64,000 bases of DNA, taken from Phycisphaerae bacterium RAS1 (GTDB taxonomy: Bacteria > Planctomycetota > Phycisphaerae > UBA1845 > Fen-1342). The notes under the pieces are model-generated. The model was not told where the DNA came from. It saw nothing but the letters and a program-made list of their open reading frames with translations, and ran no database searches. The stretch's first letter is position 1; every line of letters starts with the position of its first letter. The DNA is taken from assembly GCA_007859745.1 (NCBI GenBank), contig SMLU01000002.1, forward strand, positions 178,942-242,941, in the 5' to 3' direction. Shown here one piece after another: positions 53,680-58,739 of this stretch. Position numbers and translations under genes: made by a program.

Positions 53680-53764
53680 TCCGATTGCCGCTCTCGCAGG
53701 CGTCAAACTGGCGTCCCGGGTATCATGCTGCGTGCGAAAGCCCAACGCGCCTAAGGACTCGTCG

Positions 53765-55087
53765 ATGCCGACTGCTGCTCCGTTGAGAGATCCGGCTGGC
53801 CGCGCCCGCCTCTCCGACGCCGACGCCCTCGCCATGTATCACGACCTCTCCATCCACGAACTCGGCAAGCTCGCCTTCGGCCGGCTCATGGAACTGCACC
53901 CGGAGCCCTACCGCACCTACGTCGTCGACCGCAACATCAACTACAGCAACGTCTGCACCGCCAAGTGCATCTTCTGCAACTTCTACACCAAGCCCGGAAA
54001 GCCCGACGCCTACATCCTGAGCTACGACGAGATCGGCCGGAAGATCGAAGAGTTGATCGACATCGGCGGCACGCAGATTCTGATGCAGGGCGGCCTGGTG
54101 CCCGACGCCTCGCACCCCAGCGGCCACGGACTGCCCTTCGAGTGGTATCTCGACCTGCTGCGCTTCATCCGCAAGAACTACCCGGGCATCCACATTCACG
54201 CATTCAGCCCGCCGGAAATCTGGGCGTTTCACCAAGTCTTCAAGATGCCGCTGCGCGACGTGCTGCTAAGGCTTCGCGACGCGGGCCTGGCGACTATCCC
54301 CGGCGGCGGCGGCGAAATTCTGGTCGACCGCGTGCGCGACATCATCGGCCAGGGCAAAACCATCACGCACGAGTGGCTGGCCGTCATGCGCGAGGCGCAC
54401 AAGCTCGGCATGAAGACAAGCTGCACGATGATGTTCGGCCACATCGAGACCATCGAAGAGCGCATCGAGCACATGCGCCTGCTGCGCGATCTTCAGGACG
54501 AACTCGGCGGCTTCACGGCGTTCATTCACTGGCCGTTTCAGCCGGAGGGGACGCCGCTGGGGCGATGGCCAGTTCAGAGTAGCGAGTTCAGAGTAGCGAG
54601 TGCAAAGACGGAAGCGTCGCCCGGAGCAGGTTCTGAACTCGCTACTCGCTCCTCGCTACTCGACACTGCGGCCCGCGGGCCGCGTCCCGACGGCAAGCAC
54701 CTGCTCCTCGCCGACGCGCACGAATACCTCGTGATGCTCGCCATCGCGCGGCTCTACCTCGACAACATCCCGAACATCCAGTCGAGTTGGGTCACGATGG
54801 GACCGAAGGTCGGGCAGCTTGCATTGTTCTACGGGGCCAACGACATGGGCAGCGTCATGATGGAAGAGAATGTCGTCAGCCAGGCGGGCGCGACGTTCCG
54901 GCTCAGCGAGGACGAAATCCGCCGGCTGATCACCGACGCCGGTTGGCAGCCGCAGCAGCGCGATCAGTACTACCGGCCGATCACGACGCCGCGGCGCAAG
55001 AAGCTGGACGCGCCGGCGGTAGCGATATCGAACGGGAATGATGCTGCGAAGGGGCTCGTGAGGTTGACGGTCGGGGAGCGGCGATAG
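53765..55087 (+). CDS. mqnC: cyclic dehypoxanthinyl futalosine synthase (radical SAM)
   Basis: Protein of 440 residues from ATG 53765 with AAGGA upstream. MqnC cyclises dehypoxanthinyl futalosine in the futalosine route to menaquinone. NVCTAKCIFCNFYTK (Cys64, Cys68, Cys71) is the 4Fe-4S radical-SAM site; GGTQILMQGGLVPD, IHAFSPPEIW and TIPGGGGEIL are family motifs; VTMGPKVGQLALFYGANDMG follows. Residues 270-302 are an in-frame family-F repeat insertion between HWPFQPEGTPLG and the conserved YLVMLAIARLYLDN. Other mqn genes are elsewhere. Confidence 0.93.
   Translation: MPTAAPLRDPAGRARLSDADALAMYHDLSIHELGKLAFGRLMELHPEPYRTYVVDRNINYSNVCTAKCIFCNFYTKPGKPDAYILSYDEIGRKIEELIDIGGTQILMQGGLVPDASHPSGHGLPFEWYLDLLRFIRKNYPGIHIHAFSPPEIWAFHQVFKMPLRDVLLRLRDAGLATIPGGGGEILVDRVRDIIGQGKTITHEWLAVMREAHKLGMKTSCTMMFGHIETIEERIEHMRLLRDLQDELGGFTAFIHWPFQPEGTPLGRWPVQSSEFRVASAKTEASPGAGSELATRSSLLDTAARGPRPDGKHLLLADAHEYLVMLAIARLYLDNIPNIQSSWVTMGPKVGQLALFYGANDMGSVMMEENVVSQAGATFRLSEDEIRRLITDAGWQPQQRDQYYRPITTPRRKKLDAPAVAISNGNDAAKGLVRLTVGERR
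54570..54668. repeat. family F repeat inside mqnC
   Basis: cagttcagagtagcgagttc-agagtagcgagt on the left and ctgaactcgctactcgctcc-tcgctactcg on the right. In frame. Same family as in the xanthine-dehydrogenase-like gene at 19411. Confidence 0.92.
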
Positions 55088-56063: not shown

Positions 56064-58739
56064 ATGGCCGTCGACATGAAATTGCTTCGGCAGCAACTGA
56101 ACAACACCTGCATCCAGGCGCTCGAAAAAGCGGCTGGAATCTGTATCGCCCGCACGCATTACGAGATCACGGTCGAGCATTTCCTGGCTCCGCTGCTGGA
56201 CGTGGGAAACTCCGACGTGCTGTGCATCGCGGACTTCTTCAAGATGGACGTGTCCAAGCTGCGCGGGGCGATCAACCGCTGCCTGGATGAAGTGAAGACC
56301 GGCAACAGCGGCCGGCCGCAGTTCTCGCCCTTCCTGGCCGACTGGCTGTCGGACGGCTGGCAGGTCGCGTCGCTGGAGCTGGGACAGCAGCGCATTCGCT
56401 CCGGGGCGCTGATCCTGGCGCTGCTGCGCAACTCGACGCGCGCGTATTTCACCGATTACACAGATGAGCTGAAGAAAGTCGTCGAAGGCGACCTCAAGTC
56501 CAAGTTCAAGGACGTCGTCGGCGCCTCGATCGAAAACCAGGCCGCCCCGGGCGCCGGCGCCGGCCCGGGCGGGATGCCCGCAGCGGCGGGCGGCAGCCCC
56601 GAGGCGTTGACCCAGTTCACCTGGGACGTGACCGCCAAGGCCAAATCCGGCAAGATCGACGCCGTCATCGGCCGCGAGCGGGAAGTGCGGCAGGTCGTCG
56701 ATATTCTGATGCGCCGCTACCAGAATAACCCGCTTATCGTGGGCGAGCCGGGCACCGGAAAAACGGCCATTGTGGAGGGATTCGCCCTGCGGATCGTCGC
56801 TAACGACGTGCCCGCGTCGCTCCAGAACATCACGCTGCTGGCACTGGATGTCGGCCTGCTTTCGGCCGGCGCCTCGGTGAAGGGCGAGTTCGAGCGGCGG
56901 CTCAAGCAGATCATTCAGGAGGTCAACGCCAGTAACGCCGCCGGCAAGCCGATCATCCTGTTCATCGACGAGGCTCACACGCTCATCGGCGGCGGCGGCG
57001 CGGGCAACGACGCGGCCAACCTGCTCAAGCCGGCCCTGGCTCGCGGCGAACTGCGGACGATCGCCGCCACGACTTGGGCGGAGTACAAGAAATACATCGA
57101 AAAGGACCCGCCGTTCGCGCAGCGCTTCGGACTGATCAAGGTCGAGGAACCCTCGGTCGACGTGTGCGTCGAAATGCTCCGCGGCACGAAGGACAAGTAC
57201 GAAAACCACCACAAGGTGCGGATTCTGGACGACGCCATCCGCACCGCGGTCGCGATGTCCAACCAGTACCTGACTGAGCAGCAGCTCCCGCGAAAGGCGG
57301 TTTCGCTGCTCGACACGGCCTGCGCTCGCGTCGCCGTCGGCATGGCCACCACGCCCGGCTCTCTCGAAGACATCCGCCGCCGGATCATCCAGATCGACAC
57401 CGCCATCCGCGCCCTGGAGCGCGAAGCCGCCTCCGGCCACAAGCAGGACCCGGAGAAACTGGACGACCTGAAGAAGGAGCGCGAGCGGCAGCAGAAGGCC
57501 AGCGACGAACTGGAGGCGACTTGGAAGCAGGAGCAGGAGCTGGCGCAGGGCGTCCGCATGTTGCGCGACGAGCTCGAGGCGGCCATGCACGGCGATGCGC
57601 CCGCCGCGCCGGAAGGCGAAGCGGCCAAGCTGCGGCGGCCGATGGAGGAAATCCGCAAGGACCTTGACGGCGCGACCAAGACGCTCGACGGCTTCATCGG
57701 CCGGCGCCCCCCGCTGGTTCCCTTGCAGGTGGACGGCGACATCGTTGCGACGATCCTGTCCGACTGGACCGGCATCCCCGCCGGGAGCATGGTCAAGGAC
57801 CAGGCCGCCGCGATGCTGACGTTTGAGGACCGCATCGGCCAGCGCGTGGTCGGCCAGGATCACGCCATCAGGGAAATCGGTAAGCGCCTGCGCATCGCCA
57901 GTGCCAAGCTGCAAGACCCGGTGCTGCCGCTGGCGGTGCTCTTCCTGCTCGGCCCGTCGGGAACGGGAAAAACCGAGACCGCCCTCGCGATCGCCGATTT
58001 GGTCTTCGGCGGCGACCGCTTCATGACCGGCATCAACATGACCGAGTACAGCAGCTCGATGAACGTCAGCCGGCTGATCGGCTCGGCCCCCGGTCTGGTC
58101 GGATTCGGCGAGGGCGGCGTGCTGACCGAGGCGGTGCGCAAGCGGCCTTACAGCGTCGTGCTGCTCGACGAGATGGAAAAAGCGCACATGGACGTGAACC
58201 TGCTGTTCATGCAGGTCTTCGACAAGGGCGCCCTGACCGACTCGGAAGGCCGCGTCGCCAACTTCAAGAACACCGTGATCGTGATGACCAGCAACGAAGG
58301 CTCGGACATGATCATGGAGATGTGCGCCGACGGCGAAACGCCCACGCTGGAGGAGATGCGCGTCGCGATTCAGCCGATCATCGAGAAGCGCTTTACGCCG
58401 GCGTTCGTCGGCCGCACGACGGTGATTCCGTTCTATCCGCTGTCGCCGGACGTGCTGCGCAAGATCGTCGATCTGAAGATGAAGAAGATCAAGCAGCGCC
58501 TGCAGAGCCTGTACCGCATGGAGCTGGTGATCAAACCCGAGGTAGGCGACACGATCGCCGCCCGCTGCAAGACGATCACGGTCGGCGCGCGCCTGATCAA
58601 CATCATCATCAGCGAAACGGTGCAGCCCGAGATCGCCCGGCGCGTCCTGGAGACGATGGGCGGCGACGAGAAGTACAGCCAGCTTGTGCTGGGCGTGGAC
58701 CCGGCCAGCAACGAGTTCACGTATGAATTTGTGAAGTAG
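56064..58739 (+). CDS. tssH: TssH/ClpV-like AAA+ ATPase
   Basis: Protein of 891 residues. N-domain LNNTCIQALEKAAGICIART... matches ClpV; D1 has GEPGTGKT (227-234) and IILFIDEAHTLIG; a coiled-coil middle domain (about 430-530); D2 has GPSGTGKT (630-637) and VVLLDEMEKAH. LTQFTWDVTAKAKSGKIDAV and AGASVKGEFERRLKQII are typical ClpV/TssH segments. ClpV recycles contracted type VI secretion sheaths. The D2 pore loop reads PGLVGFGEGG (Leu678), not the conserved Tyr. No other T6SS genes are in the window. A ClpB-like disaggregase is the alternative. Stop is part of a family-J repeat. The 308-base gap upstream (55756-56063) shows no gene. Confidence 0.88.
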   Translation: MAVDMKLLRQQLNNTCIQALEKAAGICIARTHYEITVEHFLAPLLDVGNSDVLCIADFFKMDVSKLRGAINRCLDEVKTGNSGRPQFSPFLADWLSDGWQVASLELGQQRIRSGALILALLRNSTRAYFTDYTDELKKVVEGDLKSKFKDVVGASIENQAAPGAGAGPGGMPAAAGGSPEALTQFTWDVTAKAKSGKIDAVIGREREVRQVVDILMRRYQNNPLIVGEPGTGKTAIVEGFALRIVANDVPASLQNITLLALDVGLLSAGASVKGEFERRLKQIIQEVNASNAAGKPIILFIDEAHTLIGGGGAGNDAANLLKPALARGELRTIAATTWAEYKKYIEKDPPFAQRFGLIKVEEPSVDVCVEMLRGTKDKYENHHKVRILDDAIRTAVAMSNQYLTEQQLPRKAVSLLDTACARVAVGMATTPGSLEDIRRRIIQIDTAIRALEREAASGHKQDPEKLDDLKKERERQQKASDELEATWKQEQELAQGVRMLRDELEAAMHGDAPAAPEGEAAKLRRPMEEIRKDLDGATKTLDGFIGRRPPLVPLQVDGDIVATILSDWTGIPAGSMVKDQAAAMLTFEDRIGQRVVGQDHAIREIGKRLRIASAKLQDPVLPLAVLFLLGPSGTGKTETALAIADLVFGGDRFMTGINMTEYSSSMNVSRLIGSAPGLVGFGEGGVLTEAVRKRPYSVVLLDEMEKAHMDVNLLFMQVFDKGALTDSEGRVANFKNTVIVMTSNEGSDMIMEMCADGETPTLEEMRVAIQPIIEKRFTPAFVGRTTVIPFYPLSPDVLRKIVDLKMKKIKQRLQSLYRMELVIKPEVGDTIAARCKTITVGARLINIIISETVQPEIARRVLETMGGDEKYSQLVLGVDPASNEFTYEFVK

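What the first reader, a model, noticed from the sequence alone, without database searches (positions are those of the whole stretch)
56064..58739. Stand-alone TssH/ClpV with Leu in place of the D2 pore-loop Tyr
The protein is TssH-like through the N-domain and D1, yet no sheath, baseplate or other T6SS gene is within 50 kb of its 5' side or 5 kb of its 3' side in this window. In D2, the conserved pore loop G-Y-V-G is G-L-V-G (Leu678). Loss of the aromatic residue is expected to weaken threading, so the protein may work on another polymer or have its D2 serve only assembly.
Basis: partly seen in the sequence, partly recalled or inferred. Interest (0 to 1): 0.6.

Follow-up and report, generated by a model that had tools for sequence, protein, structure and literature searches.

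The report
Sheath-recycling motor with altered channel grip
The gene encodes the motor that recycles a bacterial contractile weapon; the weapon's other genes are scattered elsewhere in the same genome, and a whole lineage of these motors has replaced channel residues that almost all their relatives keep for gripping protein.

Summary
In detail: 56064-58739 encodes a TssH/ClpV whose D2 pore loop reads GLVG, with Leu678 at the ClpB Tyr653 position. The 'stand-alone' reading fails at genome level. The same genome holds TssA, B, C, E, F, G, K, L, M, Hcp and two VgrG, scattered over at least seven places. tssEFG lies about 68 kb upstream on the same contig, and this is the genome's only ClpV over the family cut-off. 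In 7 of 8 other lineage members whose upstream DNA is visible, the gene sits directly behind tssG.

The Leu is not a fluke. It is in all 10 distinct members found of this lineage and arose separately in a second planctomycete pair (one origin rejected, p about 1e-10). Both groups also lost Glu664 and changed Pro675 to Ala and Ser660 to Thr. The window's lineage further changed His666 to Met and one of the two D1 arginine-finger residues (Arg353 to Gln). In ClpB, Tyr653, Glu639 and His641 contact the threaded substrate.

Best reading: a T6SS ClpV that still acts on the TssB/TssC sheath, with a remodelled, non-aromatic D2 grip. Weaker threading is plausible but untested; another polymer has no support. 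A new variant of a known kind.

The parts
56064..58739 (+). tssH/clpV gene, 891 aa, ATG start
   Evidence: TIGR03345 1060 bits against cut-off 885; only match over the cut-off in the genome
56064..56543 (+). ClpV-type N-domain (about residues 1-160)
   Evidence: matches the chains 3zri/3zrj, 4hh5 and 4uqw, E 5e-18, 1e-15 and 4e-12; that 3zri/3zrj are V. cholerae ClpV is recalled
56742..56765 (+). D1 Walker A GEPGTGKT (227-234)
56877..56879 (+). D1 pore-loop position Val272 (Tyr251 in ClpB); non-aromatic in the ClpV-like sequences read here
   Evidence: V, M, I or A in 118 of 118 ClpV-like; Y or F in 75 of 75 ClpB/C-like
57108..57131 (+). D1 arginine-finger segment PPFAQRFG (349-356); Gln353 opposite ClpB R331, Arg354 opposite R332
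   Evidence: arginine fingers named in PMC6593972
57951..57974 (+). D2 Walker A GPSGTGKT (630-637), intact
58041..58061 (+). D2' secondary pore loop TEYSSSM (660-666): Ser664 replaces a Glu found in 180 of 180 Hsp100s without the Leu; Met666 replaces a His found in 104 of 104 Tyr-type ClpVs (in ClpB/C-like it is His in 46 and Phe in 30 of 76)
   Evidence: ClpB E639/K640/H641 contact the substrate (PMC6546751)
58080..58106 (+). D2 primary pore loop GSAPGLVGF (673-681): Ala675 and Leu678 replace Pro and Tyr; Val679 and aromatic 681 kept
58161..58187 (+). D2 Walker B region LLDEMEKAH (700-708), intact

Best explanation
This is the genome's own T6SS ClpV (TssH). It most likely binds the N-terminal segment of TssC (SLLDEV...) on the contracted TssB/TssC sheath through its N-domain, hydrolyses ATP in both rings, and pulls the TssC N-terminus into the channel so that sheath subunits are recycled. 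In this lineage the D2 grip has been rebuilt: a Leu-Val clamp in place of Tyr-Val, and Ser/Asn and Met in place of Glu and His in the secondary loop. The pull is therefore probably weaker or less processive, perhaps enough to destabilise the sheath without fully threading TssC. Shown here: family, active-site motifs, one ClpV with the rest of a T6SS, tssG-tssH order in relatives, fixation and double origin of the Leu. Inferred: sheath substrate, binding mode, strength of the pull.
For: T6SS genes in the same genome: TssB, TssC, Hcp, TssK, TssF, TssE/G/L and the TssM N-domain, two VgrG, TssA. One TIGR03345 match over cut-off. ClpV directly after tssG in 7 of 8 other lineage loci with upstream DNA visible. 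N-domain matches solved ClpV N-domains; TssC matches a solved T6SS sheath protein (5mxn, 607 bits; that this is V. cholerae VipB is recalled), SLLDEV opposite SLLDEI, at about the place (VipB 15-28) that the review PMC4632598 describes as bound by ClpV. TssC present in 14 of 14 genomes searched. Leu in 10 of 10 distinct lineage members, while codons at 353, 664 and 675 vary synonymously: constraint, not decay. Convergence. Substrate contacts in ClpB.
Against: In ClpB, Tyr653 is essential for disaggregation (PMC6593972), and pore mutations in ClpV block sheath disassembly in vitro (PMC4632598), so a pore without the Tyr might not thread at all; I could not read which residue was mutated in ClpV. 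In the window genome and in G688 the gene is not beside tssG. At codon 678 itself there is no synonymous variation in the window's lineage (CTG in 10 of 10). No structure of useful confidence was obtained.
Confidence: 0.7

Rival explanations
1. D2 no longer threads. The D2 ring serves assembly or ATP-driven shape change, and the sheath is broken up by D1 pulling or by non-processive binding, as suggested for Torsins, which lack aromatic pore loops.
For: D2 Tyr, Glu and His contact positions are replaced together in the window's lineage; the D1 loop lacks an aromatic as in the ClpVs read, so no aromatic remains at either canonical position. Torsin precedent in PMC5425593 (passages).
Against: D2 Walker A and B are intact, Val679 and an aromatic at 681 are kept in 12 of 12, and Leu is still a bulky hydrophobic.
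Confidence: 0.2
2. The protein is a stand-alone ClpV recruited to another polymer.
For: No match to 15 T6SS-related proteins of the genome in the window, nor in the 18.7-kb contig of the G688 copy.
Against: T6SS present with no other ClpV over the cut-off; gene beside tssG in 7 of 8 other members with upstream DNA visible; ClpV-binding TssC segment kept; G688 too has a TssC.
Confidence: 0.04
3. The gene is decaying or neutral: the T6SS no longer needs recycling, so the channel drifts.
For: The cited review says V. cholerae lacking ClpV still kills in a T6SS-dependent way (PMC4632598).
Against: Intact frame of 891 codons; D2 residues 660, 666, 675 and 678 identical in 10 members, the others at about 65-73% identity to this protein, with synonymous codon changes at 353, 664 and 675; the same four positions changed in an independent lineage.
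Confidence: 0.03

Closest known systems
T6SS ClpV/TssH (TIGR03345)
   Same: Family score over cut-off, ClpV N-domain, two AAA+ rings with intact Walker motifs, non-aromatic D1 pore loop, only ClpV over cut-off in a genome with a T6SS, tssG-tssH order in relatives.
   Different: D2 pore-loop Tyr is Leu; D2' loop Glu and His are Ser (Asn in one member) and Met; PPG is APG; D1 arginine pair RR is QR.
ClpB/Hsp104 disaggregases
   Same: Same architecture; the D2 loops align residue for residue.
   Different: ClpB has Tyr in both pore loops; this protein has an aromatic at neither canonical position.
Torsins (Clp/Hsp100-related AAA+ without aromatic pore loops)
   Same: No aromatic at the canonical pore-loop positions (review passages).
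   Different: Eukaryotic, weak ATPases that need cofactors, with one AAA+ module (recalled); here two rings keep their ATPase motifs.

Membership tests
T6SS ClpV/TssH | Curated family score (TIGR03345, cut-off 885 bits) | tested here: met
   1060 bits, residues 12-875
T6SS ClpV/TssH | ClpV-type N-domain that binds TssC | tested here: met
   sequence match to 3zri/3zrj, 4hh5 and 4uqw; binding itself not testable
T6SS ClpV/TssH | Two AAA+ rings with Walker A and B | tested here: met
   GEPGTGKT, FIDEAH, GPSGTGKT, LLDEMEKAH
T6SS ClpV/TssH | Encoded with a T6SS in the genome | tested here: met
   not adjacent in this genome, but behind tssG in 7 of 8 other members with upstream DNA visible
T6SS ClpV/TssH | D2 pore-loop Tyr (conserved in practice, not part of the family cut-off) | tested here: not met
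   Leu678; Tyr in 106 of 118 distinct ClpV-like sequences read, Leu in the other 12
T6SS ClpV/TssH | Arg-Arg pair in the D1 arginine-finger motif (conserved in practice) | tested here: not met
   Gln353-Arg354 in the window's lineage (10 of 10); first Arg in 68 of 68 Tyr-type rows; Arg-Arg in the second Leu pair
T6SS ClpV/TssH | ATP-dependent disassembly of contracted sheath | not testable with these tools
   needs purified proteins
Complete T6SS (core set) | TssA, B, C, E, F, G, K, L, M, Hcp, VgrG in the genome | tested here: met
   TssM by its N-terminal IcmF domain only (PF06761 gave no match); TssJ only a candidate lipoprotein with no Pfam match; PAAR not searched in this genome

The most novel reading that the evidence does not exclude
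Two planctomycete lineages have independently given up the Tyr grip in the D2 ring of ClpV together with a partner set (T660, loss of E664, A675), and run a T6SS whose sheath is taken apart by a motor with no aromatic pore-loop residue at either canonical position, hence by a non-threading or only partly threading mechanism.
Probability: 0.25. Interest if true: 0.65.

Novelty: new variant of a known kind. Interest (0 to 1): 0.45.

Why it matters
The aromatic pore loop is held to be critical for processive unfolding by Clp/Hsp100 motors (PMC5425593 abstract). A natural ClpV lineage, tied to a T6SS and under constraint, that lacks it and has changed the neighbouring contact residues in step is a ready-made test of an open point stated in the T6SS literature (PMC4632598): whether ClpV threads all of VipB/TssC, or only pulls its N-terminus until the sheath falls apart. 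The convergence at four positions also points to residues that may have to change together when the Tyr goes.

Tried and rejected
Structure prediction on a six-sequence alignment: mean pLDDT 46.7, pTM 0.26, too poor to use; no fold search was run on it. TssM by PF06761: no match; found instead by PF14331 in the TssK locus. TagJ by PF07024: no match, but the control rang nowhere, so nothing follows. V231T, first listed among the lineage-specific changes, was dropped: many Tyr-type ClpVs of the same class also have Thr there. A shared origin of the two Leu groups: the AU test without the loop columns rejects one clade; separate D1 and D2 trees to look for recombination were not built. Considered and rejected: sequencing error or chance mutation (10 distinct members agree); pseudogene (intact frame). 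The two ClpV pore papers (Bonemann 2009; Pietrosiuk 2011, DOI recalled) are not held, so which ClpV residue was mutated was not read. A search for ClpA pore residues gave no paper.

Full report
OBSERVATION. The ORF at 56064-58739 (+, 891 aa) is real and scores 1060 bits against TIGR03345, the NCBIfam model of the T6SS ATPase TssH (cut-off 885; next best ClpB 702, far below its own cut-off of 1232). GLVG begins at residue 677, and the Leu678 codon CTG is at 58095-58097. In the phmmer alignment to ClpB (6oax), L678 lies opposite Y653, V679 opposite V654, S664/S665/M666 opposite E639/K640/H641, and Q353/R354 opposite R331/R332 (residue numbers counted from that alignment). None of 15 T6SS-related proteins taken from the genome hits the window at E<=1e-3.

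NOT ALONE IN THE GENOME. The window is G000:C2:178942-242941 of a 5.5-Mb, 7-contig assembly, 99% complete. That genome holds TssB at C1:562702 next to TssC at C1:561418 and Hcp; TssK at C1:2794662 with TssL (DotU) and a 1611-aa TssM recognised by its IcmF N-domain (PF14331), plus a TagF-like protein slightly under its cut-off; TssE, TssF and TssG at C2:163.4-167 kb; two VgrG at C1:3279506 and C1:99797; TssA at C1:882959. PF06761 for TssM found nothing. A lipoprotein-like protein before TssK has no Pfam match and is only a TssJ candidate. The genome has one TIGR03345 match over cut-off, this gene; the other two large Hsp100 matches carry the domain make-up of ClpB and ClpC type proteins (the names are my reading of their Clp_N, UVR and AAA matches). 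So the T6SS is nearly complete but scattered over at least seven places, and tssH is about 68 kb from tssG on the same contig.

RELATIVES. A scan of public genomes gave six close relatives, L057-L062, 66-73% identical, all planctomycete MAGs (80 loci kept, the rest 31-45% identical). Among the genomes held, a class-wide search found a match at E<=1e-180 in 52 of 397. Eight of the ten bear the window's own family code; L059 and L060 bear no code. ClpV lies directly behind tssG in L057-L062 and G468. The G688 copy lies on an 18.7-kb contig without a match to any of 15 T6SS-related proteins; in G653 the contig begins at the gene. So 7 of 8 other members with upstream DNA visible keep tssG-tssH, which makes the separation in the window's genome look derived. 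Each lineage genome shows one ClpV (three are reported in two adjoining pieces). TssC was found in 14 of 14 genomes searched, in six lineage genomes at 79-85% identity and in a seventh in part.

THE LEU IS A LINEAGE TRAIT, AND IT AROSE TWICE. Phylum-wide, 70 of 392 genomes have a ClpV over cut-off. I read the loop in all 70: 30 (2 Leu, 28 Tyr), 39 others (all Tyr; two partial genes), and the window's own (Leu). The two further Leu cases are G373 and G105 (L050, L053). Class-wide, 29 loci were read: 6 Leu, all of the window's lineage, and 23 Tyr; the remaining places were not all read. Fourteen proteobacterial ClpVs from plasmid records all have Tyr (14 of the 357 matching records, which also include ClpB, were read). 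After removing duplicates, 118 ClpV-like sequences (told apart by Gly at 682) split 106 Tyr to 12 Leu, and 75 ClpB/ClpC-like sequences are all Tyr. In a tree of 79 rows the Leu needs two changes. In a second tree of 45 rows (a chosen subset, all 12 Leu rows included), built without columns 345-358 and 655-690, the 10 lineage rows form one clade and one clade of all 12 Leu rows is rejected, p-AU 9.5e-11 (quick search).

IT COMES WITH PARTNERS. Positions held by at least 95% of 68 Tyr-type rows but changed and identical in all seven lineage members of that alignment include A350P, L351F, R353Q, Q356G, R401Q and D410R in D1, and S660T, E664S, H666M, P675A and Y678L in D2. V231T was also listed but is shared by Tyr-type ClpVs of the class and is dropped. 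In 180 Hsp100 sequences without Leu, position 664 is E in 180, 678 is Y in 180, 675 is P in 179, and 660 is S in 177 and T in 3; 666 is H in 150 and F in 30, the F all in ClpB/C-like rows (193 distinct rows in all, 13 with Leu, one a partial copy of another). All 12 Leu sequences have T660, A675 and no E664 (S in nine, N in one, Q in two); H666 becomes M in the 10 of the window's lineage and stays H in the second pair. So two separate lineages changed the same four positions. At 353, 664 and 675 the codons vary synonymously in the window's lineage; at 678 all ten are CTG.

WHAT THESE RESIDUES DO. In ClpB, Y653 and V654 clamp the substrate backbone, and E639, K640 and H641 of the D2' loop contact it; E639K keeps about 40% and H641A/E about 60% of activity (PMC6546751, passages). 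Y653 is essential for disaggregation, and R331/R332 are the D1 arginine fingers (PMC6593972, passages). Non-aromatic residues at the D1 position are normal for ClpV: 118 of 118 ClpV-like have V, M, I or A, 75 of 75 ClpB/C-like have Y or F. Thus an ordinary ClpV has one canonical aromatic, in D2, and this lineage has none there; an aromatic three residues on (681) and Val679 are kept in 12 of 12.

SUBSTRATE. The N-domain matches the solved N-domains 3zri/3zrj, 4hh5 and 4uqw. The genome's TssC matches the solved sheath protein 5mxn at 607 bits (V. cholerae VipB by recall; the table names it a type VI secretion protein, and chain 3j9g 'VipB' scores 593 bits), SLLDEV opposite SLLDEI. [quoted passage not shown] Of eight lineage TssC, own and six others keep SLLDE followed by V or I, and G468 has SLLDDL. 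The second Leu pair has a diverged segment (SVLETIF), but its ClpVs lie beside VgrG, with TssK and TssL 5-8 kb away (both genomes), a PAAR gene confirmed in G373 and an FHA gene in G105, and TssC about 29 kb away.

MECHANISM AND LIMITS. Best reading: a T6SS sheath-recycling ClpV with a rebuilt, aliphatic D2 grip. The same review leaves open whether ClpV threads all of VipB or only pulls until the sheath breaks; a weaker grip would fit the second, but that is inference. Torsins are a precedent for Clp-related AAA+ without aromatic pore loops, for which processive translocation is judged improbable (PMC5425593, passages). The structure job gave a poor model.

LITERATURE. Searches for ClpV with 'pore loop' (0 papers), ClpV/VipA/pore/threading (15 of 132 listed), Planctomycetes with T6SS terms (5 and 4 papers) and ClpV/pore/tyrosine/sheath (8 of 9 listed) showed nothing that by title or start of abstract reports a Leu-type ClpV; these are listings only, from a library that lacks most subscription papers.

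Noticed in passing
L013:9991-11757 (G000:C1:3252990-3254756); similar frames in L241-L250: A 588-aa protein fuses a TssB-like and a TssC-like part (PF05591 40 bits, PF05943 113 bits, no PF18945), next to an LptD-like gene and a cytochrome P450, with no T6SS gene recognised among the neighbours scanned. A second, weak TssC match occurs in 10 of 14 genomes searched, each in a 569-660 aa frame that aligns to most of the fused protein at 30-57% identity; in G431 and G581 it is about 10-13 kb from the ClpV gene.
   Followed up: partly
G000: C1:99.8k, C1:561k, C1:883k, C1:2.79M, C1:3.28M, C2:164k, C2:235k: The T6SS genes of this planctomycete are scattered over at least seven places, whereas 32 of 39 stretches around other planctomycete ClpVs show tssC, tssF and tssG together (L137-L175).
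   Followed up: partly
L018:5981-6430 (G000:C1:2598980-2599429): A 149-aa ORF lies where the ClpV model matches weakly with its N-terminal part only (L008, one stop inside the matched stretch), perhaps a free Clp N-domain.
   Followed up: no
L171 (G314) and L170 (G144): Two Tyr-type ClpVs have irregular D2 loops (GPPPGYAGFGKGG and GTSAGYVGFGEGG), so the loop base varies elsewhere while the Tyr stays.
   Followed up: no
window 53732-55087: MqnC-like gene (TIGR03699, 438 bits against cut-off 428) whose match falls into two stretches; by eye the protein has some 40 extra residues between them.
   Followed up: no
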